Positions 29,486 to 36,651 of a stretch of 64,000 nucleotides of DNA are shown piece by piece (the first letter of the stretch is position 1; every line of letters starts with the position of its first letter). The stretch comes from Colwellia sp. Arc7-635. GTDB taxonomy: Bacteria; Pseudomonadota; Gammaproteobacteria; Enterobacterales; Alteromonadaceae. The stretch covers positions 3,596,001-3,660,000 of the forward strand of contig NZ_CP034660.1 of the NCBI RefSeq assembly GCF_003971255.1. Direction: 5' to 3'. The position numbers were made by a program, and so were the translations under genes. The notes below the pieces were generated by a model, which saw only the letters and a program-made list of their open reading frames with translations, was not told the origin of the DNA and did not search any database.

Positions 29486-31042
29486 TTAGCCTAACTTATC
29501 TGTCGCAATATGGTAATCAGGGTCTTCAATCACATTGATTTCCACTAAGCTGCCAGCTTTGGTTAACAACTGCGTACATTCTTTACTTAAATGCTTTAAA
29601 TGCATTTTTTTACCGCGACTCAAATAACGCTCAGCTAAAGTATCAATGGCTTCAATGGCTGAATGGTCCGCAACACGTGAGTTTTTAAACTCAACAATAA
29701 CATCATCGCTATCACCTTCCATATCAAACTGTTCTAAAAAGCTAGATACCGAACCAAAGAATAATGGCCCATTGACGTCATACACGGTCGAACCTTTGGC
29801 GTTAATCGTACGATGAACAATGACATGTTTGGCATGTTCCCAAGCAAAAACGAGTGCTGAAACAATCACACCTACAACAACCGCTATTGCTAGATCAGTC
29901 GCTACAGTAACCGCTGATACTAAGATCATCACAAAAGCGTCTGCTTTTGGCACTTTGCCAACAATACGAATACTCGACCATTCAAAAGTACCAATAACAA
30001 CAATAAACATAACACCAACAAGCGCTGCAAGCGGTATTTGTTCAATCAATCCTGAAGCAAATAAAATAAAACCGAGTAATGCAAGTGCTGCCGTGACACC
30101 AGACATACGTCCACGTCCGCCAGAGTTTACATTAATCATCGACTGGCCAATCATGGCACAACCACCCATGCCACCAAAAAATCCTGTCACAGTATTCGCG
30201 GCTCCTTGAGCTAAACATTCTTTATTGCCATGGCCACGTGTGCCCGTAAGCTCATCAATAAGCGTCAAGGTTAACAAAGACTCTATTAAACCAATAGCCG
30301 CTAAGATTAAGGCGAATGGTAGAATAACTTGCAACGTTTCAAGACTAAACGGTACATTAGGAATACTAAATTGCGGTAAACCGCCAGCAATAGAAGCGGC
30401 AGGATCATTAGTCATATCACGAACAAAATCAACAACGGTACGCGCATCTAAATCAAGGCTTTGCACTAAAAGCGTAACCACAACAATCGCTACCAGCGAA
30501 GACGGTACAGCTTTAGTTAATTTAGGTAAAAAGTGAATAATAGCCATCGTTAGTACAATTAGACCAACCATTGTGAACATTTGGCTACCTTGCATCCAGG
30601 CTAATACACCCTCTTCATTCGTTACTTTAAATTGTCCTAATTGAGCAAGGAAAATAACAATAGCTAAGCCATTAACAAAACCGAGCATGACGGGATGGGG
30701 CACCAAACGGATAAATTTCCCCAGTTTAAATAGCCCCGCGAGTATTTGTAGCACCCCGGTTAACACCACCGTGGCAAATAAATATTCAACCCCATGAATA
30801 GCAACTAAGCTCACCATTACAACAGCCATTGCACCGGTAGCACCCGAGATCATGCCTGGACGACCACCAAATATAGAGGTAATTAAACCCACCATAAAAG
30901 CAGCATATAAGCCGACTAATGGTTCCACACCGGCAACAAAGGCAAATGCTACAGCTTCAGGTACTAGTGCTAAGGCTACTGTGAAGCCTGATAACACATC
31001 ATTTTTCAAATTTGCCACTTTACTGGCGTGTAATTCAAACAT
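29486..31042 (-). CDS. SulP family inorganic anion transporter with STAS domain
   Basis: A 518-residue inner-membrane protein from the ATG at 31042; the frame is open to 31120, but the extra 26 residues are not SulP-like. About 12 helices form the SLC26/SulP core ([34 protein letters not shown]). A C-terminal STAS domain (about 415-510) follows, with [18 protein letters not shown] and [17 protein letters not shown]. It moves sulfate, bicarbonate or another anion. No carbonic anhydrase or sulfur gene is adjacent, so the substrate is open. Confidence 0.92.
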
Positions 31043-31329
31043 TATTTTCTCAACTTTGATTAGAACATCAAAAATACAAACCAGTGTCATTAGCTGGCTG
31101 ATATTTAAATACGTAGGCATAGACCCGATAGCACTTAATGATTGGCAGTTTATACCAGTAGGATTAAACGATAATCGTTATCTTTCGGGGCTTGAAGGCG
31201 CGGGAATACTATAGATATATCACCAAAAAGTCAATAAATGCTCAAAATTACATCAAGAATTTTCAAGTAAATATCGACCCTAAGCCATAGATTAGTCAGA
31301 AATTTTTAGTGCAGGAAGTTGATATAAAA

Positions 31330-32001
31330 CTAACCGCTGGTGATAGATTCACGTTCATTTAAGAAGGCTTTTATTTCGTCACGAGATCCCAGAATATGCT
31401 GCTTTAACAATGCGACTGCTTTTTCGACATCACGAGCTTTACATAACGCTAAAATTTCATTGTGTTCCGATTCAGCTTTAGAAATACCGCCAGCCCAAAG
31501 TAAGTGCATACGAATATAACGATCGGCATTCTTGTTTAGGGTATTAACCAAATCTTGGGTTTGTGGACGATTAGCACCAGAATATAAGCAATTATGGTAA
31601 TTAGAGTTGAGCTCACTCCAAGTATTTACTGCATTTTCTTTACCCAAAGCTTTATCTAGTTTTTTCAGTACTTGCGTAGCTTCTTCTAATTTTTCATTAC
31701 TGATACGCGGTAATGAATTGGCCAGTAAATCTCCCTCTAACATAGCACGCAGTTCAAAAAGCTCATCAACTTGACTAGCATTTAACTCAGTTGCCGTAGC
31801 ACCTTTATGAGGTTCAAAAACGACTAAACCTTCACCTTCAAGTTGTAATAGCGCTTCTCTGATTGGAATTCGGCTAACGTTCAATTCTTCCGCTAATGCT
31901 GCTTGTCTTAAAGGTTGGCCGGCTTTAATCTCACCACTTAAGATTTTTTCTCTCAGTGTTTCGACGACTAATTGAGTTCTCGTTTTATATACTATGCTCA
32001 T
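31330..32001 (-). CDS. GntR family transcriptional regulator, FadR/FCD type
   Basis: A 223-residue regulator. The N-terminal winged helix (VVETLREKILSGEIKAGQPLRQ, then LNVSRIPIREAL) is followed by an all-helical FCD ligand domain (VDELFELRAMLEGDLL, later HNEILALCKARDVEKAV). FCD regulators usually bind organic acids. It is divergent from the DUF1538 operon across 665 bases that contain several dyads, so it may control that operon or itself. This is inference. Confidence 0.88.
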   Translation of the reverse strand: MSIVYKTRTQLVVETLREKILSGEIKAGQPLRQAALAEELNVSRIPIREALLQLEGEGLVVFEPHKGATATELNASQVDELFELRAMLEGDLLANSLPRISNEKLEEATQVLKKLDKALGKENAVNTWSELNSNYHNCLYSGANRPQTQDLVNTLNKNADRYIRMHLLWAGGISKAESEHNEILALCKARDVEKAVALLKQHILGSRDEIKAFLNERESITSG

Positions 32002-32666
32002 ACTGGGCTTCCTAGGGATATTACCGCTATTATAGAGCCTCGCACGCTAAACACAAAGAAGACTGATTATAGATAACTCTTTTAATTTTATGGCTAATTT
32101 TATTAAAAACTTAAATAATCTTATTTTTTCAATAGACTGCAGCCCTACTTACTAGACTTATCTCCGACATTATAACTTTGCATTACCATTGAGCTATAAC
32201 ACTAGTTTGTGACATACGCCAAATCAATAATTAGGCAAGGAGGAGTAAACACCGCGCTATTTTGGTAATCGATGTTAGGTTAATTTGCGATACGACTATT
32301 TTTGCGATACGACTATTTTAGCCCAATAATTACTGACCGCTACTTAAGAGCTCTCGTAATACTCCATTAATGTCGATGTAAATGAACACCAGTGTCGATT
32401 AATAGCGGAATCAATTACATCTCAATACCTAGGGGTATTTTTATCTTAGTCACCTATTTTTTCGCATAATTACAACTGAGAAAAAACCTCTGTTTTCACA
32501 ACATTTCTGTTTACTTCCATTGGAATGTAAACGACTAACTTAGTCTTGCTTTCTACCTAGTTCAACCGTTATTTATGGCCTCAAAACAGAACACTTGTTT
32601 TGGATCAAGCCGTCATTTTAATGTAACGGGTATAGTTAAATTTCCCTTTGGCAATTTTGTCGCGAT
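32002..32666. promoter_or_regulatory. Long divergent control region between gntR and the DUF1538 operon
   Basis: No gene is supported in 665 bases. It holds a perfect 17-base tandem repeat at 32284-32317 (TTTGCGATACGACTATT twice). A nested dyad lies at 32509-32532 (GTTTAC...GTAAAC around TTCCATTGGAA), and a dyad CAAAACA-7-TGTTTTG lies at 32582-32602, 64 bases before the first start. The last two are plausible operators. Confidence 0.5.
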
Positions 32667-33404
32667 ATGAACCAACAGTTAATTGTTTTCTTCAAAGCGC
32701 TTTTGGATAGTTGCAAAGACTTACTACCAATCGTCCTTGTGATCGCGTTTTTTCAGTTTGCGGTTTTACAGCAAGCGATGCCAAACCTTGGCGATATTTT
32801 TGTTGGTTTGGTGTTAGTCGTATTGGGTTTAACCTTTTTCATTTATGGCTTAGAAATGAGCTTATTTCCAATTGGCGAATCTATGGCCAAAGCTTTTGCC
32901 ATAAAAGGCAGTACGACTTGGCTGCTAATTTTTGCCTTTTGTTTAGGCTTTGGCACTACCGTTGCTGAACCCGCACTTATCGCTGTCGCACGCGAAGCTG
33001 CAGCGGTTGCATCAAGTGGCGGTATTATTGGGGCGACAGAAATAGCGCGAAATGAGTACGCGAATGGCCTACGTTATACCGTTGCCTTTGCTGTTGGTTT
33101 CGCGATTGTTATCGGCGTTCTGCGTATTATTCGAGGTTGGCCAATTCAATATCTAATTTTAGGCGGCTATATCGTGGTCGTGATCATGACTGCATTTGCA
33201 CCGACTTGGATCATCGGTATTGCTTATGACTCTGGTGGCGTTACAACCTCGACGATTACAGTGCCCTTGGTCACGGCGCTAGGTGTCGGCTTAGCCTCAG
33301 CAATTAAAGGCAGAAACCCTATGACAGATGGTTTTGGCCTTATCGCCTTTGCCTCGCTAACACCGATGATTTTTGTCATGTTATACGGCATGGTAATAAG
33401 CTAA
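32667..33404 (+). CDS. DUF1538 membrane protein, subunit A
   Basis: A 245-residue protein of about seven hydrophobic helices and first gene of a four-gene operon. Conserved blocks are [30 protein letters not shown] and [14 protein letters not shown]. The AEPAL and DSGGVTTST motifs place charged and polar residues inside the membrane, as in ion transporters. I recall DUF1538 pairs from Halomonas (UmpA/UmpB) being reported as a two-component Na+/H+ antiporter; this should be verified. No strong ribosome binding site is seen before the ATG. Confidence 0.85.
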
Positions 33405-33446
33405 TGAACGTAAAAACTTTACCACTTAACAACAGAGTACACTAAC

Positions 33447-34226
33447 TTGAATTTGCTGATAGCACTTTTCGAGACCTTAAAATCAACCGTGGTTGACGTA
33501 CTACCTATTTTATCGATCATCGTTTTATTCCAATTACTAGTCATTCGTCGCCCTATCGCTAATTTAAAAAAAGTCGGCTTTGGTTTTTGCTATGTATTAA
33601 TTGGTTTAGCCTTCTTTTTATTAGGCTTAGAAAAAGCCTTGTTTCCGTTAGGTAAAATGATGGCGGCACAATTAACGGCTGCTGAGTTTATTAATGCTGG
33701 CACAACGATCCATTGGACTGACTATGCTTGGGTATACATTTTTTCCGCTGCGATAGGTTTTAGTACCACAATTGCAGAGCCTTCTCTTATTGCTGTGGCA
33801 TTAAAAGCACAGGAAGTCTCTGGTGGAGGTATTCGTGCTAATAGTTTACGCATTGCCGTTGCAATAGGTGTTGCCATTGGTATCGCTTTAGGAAGCTATC
33901 GCATTGTGGTTGGCCATCCGATCCACTACTACATTATTTCGGGCTATATAGTCGTAGTTATCCAAACATTTTTCTGTCCAAAATTAATTGTACCACTCGC
34001 ATACGATTCCGGCGGTGTAACAACCTCAACCGTTACCGTACCTCTTGTTGCCGCATTAGGCTTAGGTTTAGCGAGTACCATCCCCGGAAGAAGCCCATTA
34101 ATTGATGGTTTTGGCCTTATTGCTTTCGCCAGCTTATTTCCGATAATTGCAGTAATGGCTTACGCACAAATTAGCCAAATTCAAACTAAGAAGCTAACTA
34201 AAAAACTAACTAAAAGTGAGAAATAA
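33447..34226 (+). CDS. DUF1538 membrane protein, subunit B
   Basis: A 259-residue paralogue of the preceding gene with the same blocks ([44 protein letters not shown]) and a longer basic tail (KKLTKKLTKSEK). Two homologous but distinct subunits encoded side by side suggest a heterodimer. The start is a TTG. The PII-like gene begins three bases after its stop, so translation is probably coupled. Confidence 0.85.
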   Translation: MNLLIALFETLKSTVVDVLPILSIIVLFQLLVIRRPIANLKKVGFGFCYVLIGLAFFLLGLEKALFPLGKMMAAQLTAAEFINAGTTIHWTDYAWVYIFSAAIGFSTTIAEPSLIAVALKAQEVSGGGIRANSLRIAVAIGVAIGIALGSYRIVVGHPIHYYIISGYIVVVIQTFFCPKLIVPLAYDSGGVTTSTVTVPLVAALGLGLASTIPGRSPLIDGFGLIAFASLFPIIAVMAYAQISQIQTKKLTKKLTKSEK

Positions 34227-34229
34227 GTA

Positions 34230-34580
34230 ATGCACTTTAAATTGATCATTGCATTCGTTGAAGATGACGTTACCGAAAAGGTAATGAAAGAAGCTCGCAT
34301 GGCTGGCGCTACCGGCGCCACAATTATTAATCATGCCCGTGGTGAAGGAGTTAACCGTCAAAGAACATTTTTTGGAATGCAATTAGAGTCCCAACGCGAT
34401 GTTCTATTATTTGTCGTCGAGGAGCATTTAAGCAGAAATATTTTAGAGCGTATTGCTAAAGTGGCAGGTTTTGATGAAGAGCCAGGCAAAGGCATTGCCA
34501 TTCAAATCGATATTCAAGACGCTGTCGGTGTTGTCCATCAAGTAGAGCGTTTAAAAGGTAAAATTGAGGAAGAGTTATGA
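34230..34580 (+). CDS. PII-like signalling protein
   Basis: A 116-residue protein with the PII fold pattern: a beta strand FKLIIAFVEDDVTEKVMKEA, a T-loop-like segment (ARGEGVNRQRTFFG) and a late strand IAIQIDIQDAVGV. The T-loop lacks the uridylylated Tyr context of GlnB/GlnK, so this is a PII-like family rather than a nitrogen PII. GlnK binds and gates the AmtB channel next to it; by analogy this protein may gate the DUF1538 pair in response to a nucleotide. Its stop overlaps the CBS gene start (ATGA). Confidence 0.83.
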   Translation: MHFKLIIAFVEDDVTEKVMKEARMAGATGATIINHARGEGVNRQRTFFGMQLESQRDVLLFVVEEHLSRNILERIAKVAGFDEEPGKGIAIQIDIQDAVGVVHQVERLKGKIEEEL

Positions 34581-34990
34581 ACCGCAAGTTAGTGCAAGTA
34601 AAAGATGCCATGACCACTGACAGTTATCACTTCACTGATGGTATGGCCACCGTTTCCGAAGGAATAAGGCTAGCAAAAACACATAATGTAGAGGCGCTAA
34701 TTATTAACAAGCGTCATGATAATGATGAATATGGCTTAGTACTTTTATCAGATATCGCCAAGCAAGTTATCGCTAAAGACAGATCACCTGAACGAGTCAA
34801 TTTATACGAAATTATGGCTAAGCCAATACTGTCAGTTTCACCGGATATGGACGTACGCTATTGTGCTCGCTTATTTGAAAATTTTGGGATTAATACTGCC
34901 CCGGTCATTAAAGACCAACAAGTGCTAGGTTTAGTCAATTATACGAGTATGGTGTTAACTTTGTTGCAAGAAGAAGATAAGCCGTTTTAA
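34577..34990 (+). CDS. Tandem CBS domain protein
   Basis: A 137-residue protein made of two CBS motifs (VKDAMTTDSYHF...GLVLLSDIAKQVI and YEIMAKPILSVSP...VLGLVNYTSMVLTLL). CBS pairs bind AMP, ATP or related ligands. The four-base overlap with the PII-like gene indicates coupled synthesis. With the two DUF1538 genes it gives a transporter supplied with two small cytosolic nucleotide sensors. Confidence 0.88.
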   Translation: MNRKLVQVKDAMTTDSYHFTDGMATVSEGIRLAKTHNVEALIINKRHDNDEYGLVLLSDIAKQVIAKDRSPERVNLYEIMAKPILSVSPDMDVRYCARLFENFGINTAPVIKDQQVLGLVNYTSMVLTLLQEEDKPF

Positions 34991-35088: not shown

Positions 35089-36651
35089 CTATGAGATGAT
35101 TTTTTCTTGCAAAGGTACTTTCACGATAAAGCAGCAGCCCTGATCGCTTGTAATAACTTTTATCGTACCATTTAACTTGGTATTAACGAGGTTATAAACA
35201 ATATTCATTCCTAAACCTGAACCACCTAACCCTCGTTTCGTCGTCACAAAGGGGTCGAATATCTTATCTTTAATTGTGCTATCTAAACCTTTACCGTCAT
35301 CTTTATATATCAACGTCAGATCGTTTTCATTCATTTGAAATTCAATAGATATTTCACCATCGATACGATTTTCAAAGCCATGTATATGCGAATTAGTTAA
35401 AAAATTAGTTAATATTTGGTTCCAAGCACTAGGATATGTCACTAAGTTCAGTTCTTCATCAACGTCGATGCTAATCGTATAGTTTTTTTGTTTAAATAAC
35501 GTTTTCACTGTATTTACAACGTCATTAACATGTTGTGCTAAATTAATATTTATTTTTGGATCGGTATGTTGTTCAACAGCAACTGACTTAAAGCCACGAA
35601 TTAGCTCAACAGCTTTGTTCAAACTGCGTTCAATAATGATTTCATATTCAACAAAAAGAGCTAAAACTGTCGTCAGCTGCTTTCTTGTTAATGTTTCATC
35701 AGCAAGTGATTTATTTAATTCGATAATTTTTTCTTTTAGCGCACTAACAGAAGTGACACAAATACCTAGCGGTGTATTCACTTCGTGAGCAACACCTGCA
35801 ACTAATTGACCAAGAGAAGCCATTTTTTCTGATTGTACTAATTGATCTTTAGCTAAAGTCAGTTCATTAAGCGACTGTTGTAATTGTTGGTTACTTTGAG
35901 CTAACTTCGATGTTCGCTCATACACTTTAATCTCTAGATCGCCATTCAGATTAATTAAGGCATTTTCAGCATCTTCTAACTGAATAATATCGCTCTTTAG
36001 CGTCAAGCGCATTGCATTAATCGCTGAGACTAATTCATCGAGTTCATCTGTCTTTTTACTGCGATTTTCTAGCGTTAGCGGTGTGTCTATATTCTCACCA
36101 CTCATCGCTTTTGAATACAATGTAATACGGTACAAATGACGAGTAATCAACCAGTGAACAATAAAAAACGTACTGAAAGCGACGATAAAAATTTTAATAA
36201 ATTCAGCAATAACAATAAAGCCGGCTTTTTGTCGTAAAAGTTGATAGATGTCTTGGTAATCCGCATAAATGATCATATTACCAATATCATTACCTTCAAA
36301 AACAATGGGGTAACGTCGAATTTTTATAGCATTGTCCTTACCTTCACCAACTTGATAAGTTTTGCCAAAGCTAGTGATTATTTCGACATGACGAATGTCA
36401 GGTAAGCGTTGAATACCACCAATTTGCTGTTCGACAAGTGGGTCATTAAAGTCCCATAAACTGGTGGAAATTGACTGTTGATAGCTTAATTCAATGTTAT
36501 TAAAGCGCTCATCTAGCGCTGAAACACCATCTTGAAAATCCATATATAATTGAATAGCGATGGAACACAAAGATAAAACCGCACTGCATAAGAAAATGTA
36601 AACAAAGACGCGTCGACTTAGTTTGCTATTAAAAGCACTTTTATGACTCAT
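35089..36651 (-). CDS. Orphan membrane sensor histidine kinase
   Basis: A 520-residue kinase. A transmembrane helix at about 14-36 leads to a short periplasmic domain containing STSLWDFNDPLVEQQIGG, then a second helix at about 145-168, a HAMP segment and a coiled coil. The HisKA box is AGVAHEVNTPLGI with His289, and the ATPase motifs are NFLTNSHIHGF, DDGKGL and GGSGLGMNIV. No response regulator is adjacent. It closely resembles the kinase at 11448-13211 in plan, but they are only partly similar in sequence. Confidence 0.88.
   Translation of the reverse strand: MSHKSAFNSKLSRRVFVYIFLCSAVLSLCSIAIQLYMDFQDGVSALDERFNNIELSYQQSISTSLWDFNDPLVEQQIGGIQRLPDIRHVEIITSFGKTYQVGEGKDNAIKIRRYPIVFEGNDIGNMIIYADYQDIYQLLRQKAGFIVIAEFIKIFIVAFSTFFIVHWLITRHLYRITLYSKAMSGENIDTPLTLENRSKKTDELDELVSAINAMRLTLKSDIIQLEDAENALINLNGDLEIKVYERTSKLAQSNQQLQQSLNELTLAKDQLVQSEKMASLGQLVAGVAHEVNTPLGICVTSVSALKEKIIELNKSLADETLTRKQLTTVLALFVEYEIIIERSLNKAVELIRGFKSVAVEQHTDPKININLAQHVNDVVNTVKTLFKQKNYTISIDVDEELNLVTYPSAWNQILTNFLTNSHIHGFENRIDGEISIEFQMNENDLTLIYKDDGKGLDSTIKDKIFDPFVTTKRGLGGSGLGMNIVYNLVNTKLNGTIKVITSDQGCCFIVKVPLQEKIIS

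What the first reader, a model, noticed from the sequence alone, without database searches (positions are those of the whole stretch)
32582..34990. DUF1538 pair with PII-like and CBS sensors: a nucleotide-gated two-subunit transporter
Four genes are tightly packed (gaps of 42 and 3 bases, then a four-base overlap). Two paralogous membrane proteins have intramembrane AEP and DSGGVTTST motifs, followed by two different cytosolic nucleotide-sensor folds. This mirrors AmtB-GlnK logic but with an added CBS module. A CAAAACA/TGTTTTG dyad and a divergent GntR regulator complete the cassette. To my knowledge, the coupling of the PII-like and CBS proteins to DUF1538 has not been described.
Basis: partly seen in the sequence, partly recalled or inferred. 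Interest (0 to 1): 0.72.

Follow-up and report, generated by a model that had tools for sequence, protein, structure and literature searches.

The report
UmpAB antiporter operon with PII–CBS partners
Four neighbouring genes encode a two-part exchanger from a known sodium/proton antiporter family together with two small sensor-like proteins, one of which (a relative of the nitrogen sensor PII) sits beside this exchanger in most of the genomes examined and probably controls it.

Summary
The gene cluster is real and exactly as described. The carrier family is not of unknown function: a DUF1538 pair, UmpAB of Halomonas, is a heterodimeric Na+(Li+,K+)/H+ antiporter (PMC5484666). The window's proteins match the NCBIfam UmpA/UmpB models below cut-off.

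What holds up is the coupling. In 155 of 163 non-redundant DUF1538 loci that could be judged, the next gene is PII-like. This includes five Bacillota plasmid records, where the pair is fused and followed by a double-length PII-type protein. CBS follows in 132 of 163, so it looks like an accessory. No other neighbour recurs widely.

New anatomy: UmpA and UmpB are predicted to lie in opposite orientations in the membrane (127 of 127 each; 24 of 24 fusions agree). The PII-like protein lacks canonical phosphate and 2-oxoglutarate residues and keeps a T-loop motif TFFGL. The reported dyad is better read as an FNR-type site. The GntR gene is not part of the cassette.

Most likely the PII-like protein docks on and brakes the antiporter. 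That is inferred. Structure prediction never started, and the open-access searches found no paper describing the coupling.

The parts
32667..33404 (+). umpA-like gene, DUF1538, 245 aa, predicted N-terminus inside
   Evidence: Pfam 231 bits; NCBIfam UmpA 363 bits, cut-off 490; topology
32964..32972 (+). AEP motif of UmpA (Glu101)
   Evidence: Invariant in 86-row alignment A3
33228..33254 (+). DSGGVTTST motif of UmpA (Asp188)
   Evidence: Asp188 invariant in alignment A3
33447..34226 (+). umpB-like gene, DUF1538, 259 aa, TTG start, Lys-rich C-terminal tail, predicted N-terminus outside
   Evidence: Pfam 229 bits; NCBIfam UmpB 340 bits, cut-off 500; topology
34230..34580 (+). PII-like protein, 116 aa
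   Evidence: Pfam P-II 38 bits, cut-off 25; next gene in 155 of 163 loci
34365..34379 (+). T-loop motif TFFGM of the PII-like protein (TFFGL in most relatives)
   Evidence: Phe47 in 130 and Gly49 in 133 of 133 sequences
34577..34990 (+). CBS-pair protein, 137 aa
   Evidence: Pfam CBS 43 bits, cut-off 24; nearest PDB sequence 5nmu; follows PII in 132 of 163 loci
32595..32608 (+). FNR-type site TTGTTTTGGATCAA, one mismatch from TTGAT-N4-ATCAA
   Evidence: Kept in three same-genus relatives; site enriched upstream of umpA
32582..32602 (.).
   Evidence: Exact and unique in the genome but left arm absent in three same-genus relatives

Best explanation
This is a UmpAB-type heterodimeric monovalent-cation/proton antiporter encoded together with its own regulators. 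UmpA and UmpB are homologous 7-helix proteins that insert in opposite orientations and together form one 7+7 inverted-repeat carrier. The conserved Glu (AEP) and Asp (DSGGVTTST) of each half are the likely ion and proton sites. The PII-like protein, presumably a trimer, docks through its conserved T-loop TFFGL tip on the cytosolic face and holds the carrier inactive or slowed in one ligand state. The CBS pair, in lineages that have it, adds an adenine-nucleotide (energy) input to the same switch. In the window's family the operon is probably under FNR-type oxygen control. Shown elsewhere: heterodimer and antiport of UmpAB in Halomonas. Shown here by computation: conserved coupling, predicted opposite topology, loss of canonical PII ligand residues, enrichment of FNR-type sites. 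Inferred: docking, the direction of control, the ligands and the role of CBS.
For: PII is the next gene in 155 of 163 evaluable non-redundant loci and CBS follows in 132 of 163. In 3 of the 8 others PII lies close by in another order or after an insertion (L088, L247, L260). The coupling is also in 7 of 7 plasmid records opened, five Bacillota and two Alphaproteobacteria. In a clustering of neighbour ORFs of 157 loci, of the 16 largest clusters printed none beyond A/B, PII and CBS is in more than 19 loci, except one of 29 whose representative lies antisense to PII. Two-way: 101 of 107 genomes with this PII type also have DUF1538 (compared by eye). UmpAB antiport, co-IP of the heterodimer, and activity of umpAB alone in E. 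coli KNabc: PMC5484666; activity without the partners fits a brake better than an essential subunit. Opposite topology. T-loop motif. Precedents for PII-type control of carriers (Amt, SbtA): PMC10710835, passages.
Against: The window proteins are below the UmpA/UmpB equivalog cut-offs (363 of 490 and 340 of 500), so the substrate rests on family membership and one published study. No interaction was tested and no structure model could be made (27 busy replies). The PII-like protein lacks canonical ATP-phosphate residues, so nucleotide sensing may be wrong. Several genomes carry PII paralogues of this type away from any DUF1538, so other roles exist. Five loci have no PII in reach (L103, L105, L109, L136, L250). 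CBS is absent in 31 of 163. The review remarks that PII-controlled carriers appear to be trimers; whether UmpAB is one is unknown.
Confidence: 0.6

Rival explanations
1. The carrier moves another Na+- or H+-coupled substrate in these lineages (for instance bicarbonate, in the manner of SbtA), and the PII-like protein brakes that transport. The antiport seen in Halomonas would be the activity of one branch or a side activity.
For: Equivalog cut-offs are not met by the window's proteins nor by any of 350 class genomes; the best-known PII-like brake with its own carrier, SbtB, acts on a bicarbonate carrier; several hosts listed belong to autotroph-rich groups (group habits recalled).
Against: The only tested DUF1538 pair is a cation/H+ antiporter; the cassette is also in heterotrophs such as Vibrio and in Bacillota.
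Confidence: 0.17
2. The PII-like and CBS proteins are co-transcribed with the carrier but do not touch it: they signal to enzymes or regulators elsewhere, and the operon only groups genes needed under the same condition.
For: PII-like paralogues of this type exist away from DUF1538, beside unrelated genes; canonical PII proteins have many targets (recalled).
Against: PII stays next to DUF1538 in 155 of 163 loci while the other neighbours change; linkage survives a change of gene order in L260; 101 of 107 genomes with the PII type have DUF1538.
Confidence: 0.13
3. The PII-like protein is an activator or a structural subunit of the carrier rather than a brake, and CBS is the actual switch.
For: Near-universal linkage of PII, as expected of a subunit; double-length PII-type protein beside the fused carrier in Bacillota.
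Against: Halomonas umpAB alone was active in E. coli; 31 of 163 loci have no CBS behind PII.
Confidence: 0.1

Closest known systems
UmpAB Na+(Li+,K+)/H+ antiporter of Halomonas zhaodongensis (PMC5484666)
   Same: Two adjacent homologous DUF1538 genes, 7 predicted TM segments each, UmpB with a hydrophilic C-terminal tail
   Different: PII and CBS have no occurrence in that paper's main text; the NCBIfam equivalog cut-offs are not reached by the window's proteins; 'topology' and 'inverted' do not occur there. Whether the Halomonas locus has PII and CBS genes was not established here
SbtA-SbtB
   Same: A PII-family protein that inhibits a Na+-linked carrier, in that case in its AMP-bound form
   Different: Different carrier family, single-gene carrier, no CBS partner known to me; SbtB sequences were not compared
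AmtB-GlnK
   Same: A PII-family protein that binds and blocks a carrier
   Different: The PII-like protein lacks the equivalents of Lys90, Arg101, Arg103, Lys58 and Tyr51 and is about five residues shorter in the T-loop region of the alignment
CBS-CP12 (PDB 5nmu)
   Same: Nearest solved sequence to the CBS protein, E 9.8e-22
   Different: No CP12 part in the window's 137-aa protein; ligand untested

Membership tests
DUF1538 (PF07556) | Score over the Pfam cut-off | tested here: met
   231.4 and 228.8 bits, cut-off 22.6
UmpAB antiporter (NCBIfam equivalogs NF041627/NF041628) | Score over the curated equivalog cut-off | tested here: not met
   363 of 490 and 340 of 500 bits; 0 of 350 class genomes reach the UmpA cut-off
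UmpAB antiporter (NCBIfam equivalogs NF041627/NF041628) | Adjacent distinct A and B subunits | tested here: met
   Each protein scores best with its own model; the 27 B subunits in the tree form one branch, 100/99
UmpAB antiporter (NCBIfam equivalogs NF041627/NF041628) | Cation/proton antiport activity | not testable with these tools
   Needs a vesicle assay
Canonical PII (GlnB/GlnK) | ATP-phosphate residues Lys90, Arg101, Arg103 (roles recalled) | tested here: not met
   Position 90 is Ile, Val or Leu in 129 of 133; 101 is Gly in 131; 103 is mostly Ala, Ser or Glu
Canonical PII (GlnB/GlnK) | Uridylylation site Tyr51 and 2-oxoglutarate residue Lys58 (roles recalled) | tested here: not met
   Position 51 is Thr, Ser or Val in 105 of 133; 58 falls in a gap in 133 of 133, though the gap's exact place depends on the alignment
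PII superfamily | P-II family score | tested here: met
   38 bits, cut-off 25; profile hits to P-II chains in the PDB, best E 1.8e-8
PII-controlled membrane carrier (AmtB-GlnK, SbtA-SbtB) | Direct binding of the PII protein to the carrier | not testable with these tools
   Only conserved linkage is shown
PII-controlled membrane carrier (AmtB-GlnK, SbtA-SbtB) | Trimeric carrier | not tested
   Structure jobs never started
FNR-regulated promoter | TTGAT-N4-ATCAA site upstream and FNR binding | tested here: inconclusive
   One mismatch in the window; 24 of 137 loci within one mismatch against 2.7 expected; FNR gene present; binding untested

The most novel reading that the evidence does not exclude
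A dedicated PII-type brake controls an antiparallel two-subunit cation/proton antiporter in Pseudomonadota and Bacillota, with the CBS pair as a second, energy-sensing input and FNR-type oxygen control near the window's lineage. It would be a PII-controlled carrier of a new transport class, in a family where the split antiparallel pair, the fused inverted repeat, and the single or doubled PII partner all still exist side by side.
Probability: 0.45. Interest if true: 0.78.

Novelty: new variant of a known kind. Interest (0 to 1): 0.62.

Why it matters
PII proteins are central nitrogen and energy sensors, and the carriers listed as controlled by them are few (Amt, Nrt, Urt and SbtA in the passages of the review read). 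A PII-type partner fixed to a sodium/proton antiporter in distant bacteria would extend that control to ion and pH homeostasis, and could explain how cells keep such an exchanger from draining the proton gradient. In the plasmid records the genes are annotated separately, as DUF1538 proteins and P-II family nitrogen regulators, so the unit is easy to miss. It can be tested with a plasmid, an antiporter-deficient laboratory E. coli and a vesicle assay.

Tried and rejected
GntR as part of the cassette: rejected; a homologue lies within the fetched flanks in 4 of 141 loci, window included, and SulP in 5. The dyad as an operator: exact and unique, but its one-mismatch count equals the reversed control (4 and 4) and its left arm is absent in three same-genus relatives, so the FNR reading was preferred. 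Caveat for that reading: in L073 the exact FNR-type match lies in the loop of a long inverted repeat that could be a terminator (seen by eye). A CRP-type site: 0 exact and 4 of 136 within one mismatch. A Halomonas-type locus through the UmpA equivalog model: 0 of 350 class genomes reach the cut-off, so the neighbours of the tested UmpAB itself were not seen. DUF1538 against PDB sequences: nothing for the single sequence or a profile. Partners of orphan PII-like genes: no common one among ten neighbour proteins scanned. Structure prediction: 27 attempts, all answered as busy, so no model and no fold search. Coevolution between the PII T-loop and UmpAB was not attempted; about 130 pairs seemed too few.
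Full report
OBSERVATION. Searches confirm four + strand ORFs at 32667-33404, 33447-34226, 34230-34580 and 34577-34990, with gaps of 42 and 3 bases and a 4-base overlap. Pfam names them DUF1538, DUF1538, P-II and CBS. A GntR-FCD regulator lies divergently at 31330-32001, a SulP permease at 29486-31120, and a histidine kinase convergently at 35089-36651. The genome holds two DUF1538 matches, both here, and four P-II matches, of which the window's scores lowest.

WHAT THE TRANSPORTER IS. NCBIfam gives UmpA 363 bits (cut-off 490) for the first protein and UmpB 340 bits (cut-off 500) for the second. UmpAB of Halomonas zhaodongensis is described in PMC5484666, of which I read parts 1 and 2 of 7 and search passages. 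There, two co-expressed DUF1538 genes rescued E. coli KNabc, showed Na+(Li+,K+)/H+ antiport, and co-precipitated as a heterodimer. PII and CBS do not occur in that main text. So DUF1538 is not without a known function, but the window's proteins do not reach the equivalog cut-offs.

SURVEY. DUF1538 matches occur in 45 of 196 genomes of the window's family and 126 of 398 of its phylum. The UmpA model matches in 120 of 350 of its class. After dropping four duplicates (L120, L122, L125, L246), 167 clusters remain. Four clusters had no room at a contig end (L143, L188, L198, and one of two in L252). Of the other 163, PII is the next gene downstream in 155 (59 of 63, 73 of 74, 16 of 19, 7 of 7), and CBS follows PII in 132 (45, 72, 15, 0). 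Where CBS follows, it overlaps PII by four bases in 98 of 119 pairs counted. Of the 8 clusters without PII next, L088 has it before the pair, L247 after an insertion, and L260 has PII-CBS upstream. L103, L105, L109, L136 and L250 have none in the locus. The genomes of L103, L105 and L109 have a PII of this type on another contig, for L109 together with CBS (L219). Two PII-without-CBS cases, L108 and L135, stop at or near a contig end. CBS is seen in loci labelled or placed as Pseudomonadota and in one MAG labelled Polarisedimenticolaceae (L162), and in none of the 7 plasmid loci. The sets are not random draws and lean to Pseudomonadota.

OTHER NEIGHBOURS. Clustering 1787 ORFs of 157 loci (the 16 largest clusters printed) puts A/B in 147 loci, PII in 111 and CBS in 109; these are lower than because overlapping ORFs were dropped. 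The next cluster, in 29 loci, is represented by an ORF antisense to PII. After that no cluster is in more than 19 loci. GntR homologues appear in 4 and SulP in 5 of 141 loci, the window included, so they do not belong to the unit.

OTHER PHYLA. In five Bacillota plasmid records (L220, L221, L224, L225, L226) one protein of 497-517 aa with two DUF1538 domains is followed by a PII-type protein of 217-224 aa (305 aa as an open frame in L220). Pfam finds P-II in the C-terminal half of 3 of 3 scanned, and two stretches in 1 of 3. I read it as a tandem PII with a weak N-terminal half. Plasmids of Methylocystis and Chelativorans have two DUF1538 genes and PII without CBS; in Chelativorans the first DUF1538 gene is only 273 bases long.

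REVERSE TEST. A profile of 19 DUF1538-linked PIIs matches 107 of 249 phylum genomes at E 1e-8. By my comparison by eye, 101 of the 107 also have DUF1538. The six others are G215, G310, G321, G337, G339 and G373; the G339 protein groups with canonical PII. Some genomes carry a second PII of this type away from DUF1538, beside unrelated genes. That counts against an exclusive role.

ANATOMY OF THE CARRIER. In an 86-row alignment Ala-Glu-Pro and the Asp, both Gly, Val and the second Thr of DSGGVTTST are invariant. I set 7 TM segments by hydropathy; the paper also gives 7 each. Lys+Arg lie more on the N-terminal side in 127 of 127 distinct UmpA proteins (mean 8.5 against 2.4) and in 0 of 127 UmpB proteins (3.9 against 10.6). 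In 24 of 24 fused proteins the N half behaves like A and the C half like B, and the linkers are roughly 30-40 residues with few Lys/Arg. In the tree of 88 domains the 27 B subunits form one branch (100/99). The C halves of nine proteobacterial fusions join them (100/100), and the N halves lie outside that branch. With the midpoint root used for drawing, those N halves sit between A and B, and A is not one clean branch. The Bacillota and 595-647 aa types split off on long branches. UmpAB is therefore predicted to be an antiparallel heterodimer and the fusions an inverted repeat. The TM boundaries are approximate and there is no structure model.

ANATOMY OF THE PII-LIKE PROTEIN. 133 distinct sequences were aligned with the three canonical PII proteins of the window's genome. 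Thr29 is kept in 132 and the core glycines nearly always. Lys90 is Ile, Val or Leu in 129, Arg101 is Gly in 131, Arg103 is mostly Ala, Ser or Glu, Tyr51 is Thr, Ser or Val in 105, and Lys58 falls in a gap. The roles of these residues are recalled. The loop motif T-F-F-G-L is kept (Phe47 in 130, Phe48 in 112, Gly49 in 133). A ligand other than ATP with 2-oxoglutarate, or another pose, is likely. In the PII tree the partners of the nine proteobacterial fusions form one branch (100/99); the canonical PIIs sit on a very long branch and their place is unsure.

CBS PROTEIN. It reads as a tandem CBS pair, although Pfam scores one stretch in the window's protein. The nearest solved sequence is CBS-CP12, 5nmu. 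At position 124 the window has Ser where 51% of 117 relatives have Asp.

UPSTREAM SITE. Within about 220 bases upstream of umpA, the best match to TTGAT-N4-ATCAA has at most one mismatch in 24 of 137 loci against 2.7 expected from dinucleotide shuffles, is exact in 6 against 0.11, and has at most two mismatches in 59 against 27.9. Among 80 permuted half-site and spacing combinations it ranks first, 23 of 136; the second, TTTGA-N6-TCAAA with 12, overlaps the same core. In the list 15 of 21 (the window and family loci L060-L079) are within one mismatch, so the signal is concentrated near the window; elsewhere it is 9 of 116. The window's site is 32595-32608. An FNR gene over its cut-off is in the genome. 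Regulation itself was not tested.

LITERATURE. Eight searches of an open-access library were run. DUF1538 is in five papers: I opened PMC5484666 and one passage of PMC13255231, where DUF1538 is one of the listed growth-pH genes, and saw the other three only in the listing. No paper linking DUF1538 with PII or CBS was seen. The 2023 review PMC10710835 (passages) lists PII-controlled Amt, Nrt, Urt and SbtA and remarks that such carriers appear to be trimers. Most subscription journals and all preprints are outside the library.

VERDICT. A real and widely conserved operon. The carrier belongs to a family with one tested antiporter. The PII-type partner is, as far as these searches reach, an undescribed coupling, and its regulatory role is inferred.

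Noticed in passing
35089-36651 (-): CHASE5-type histidine kinase convergent to the cassette; close homologues lie beside the cassette in near relatives (e.g. L060, L061, L069, L073, L075, L079) but hardly further out.
   Followed up: partly
29486-32001 (-): GntR-FCD regulator and SulP permease stay together in L075 and L079 about 2 kb from umpA, so they look like a separate unit.
   Followed up: partly
L088 2502-6693: Two DUF1538 cassettes head to tail: a fused UmpAB with PII and CBS, then a second PII and a split pair.
   Followed up: no
L102 5899-10511 and L074 5552-7698: A divergent 595-647 aa DUF1538 fusion with its own divergent PII and no CBS; in L102 it lies directly behind a split cassette.
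   Followed up: partly
L206, L207, L213, L216, L217, L218: PII-like paralogues away from any DUF1538, beside unrelated genes; their partner is unknown.
   Followed up: partly
L222, L223: The version with two DUF1538 genes and PII lies on plasmids typed as mobilizable (Methylocystis) and conjugative (Chelativorans), in the latter with a short first gene.
   Followed up: no
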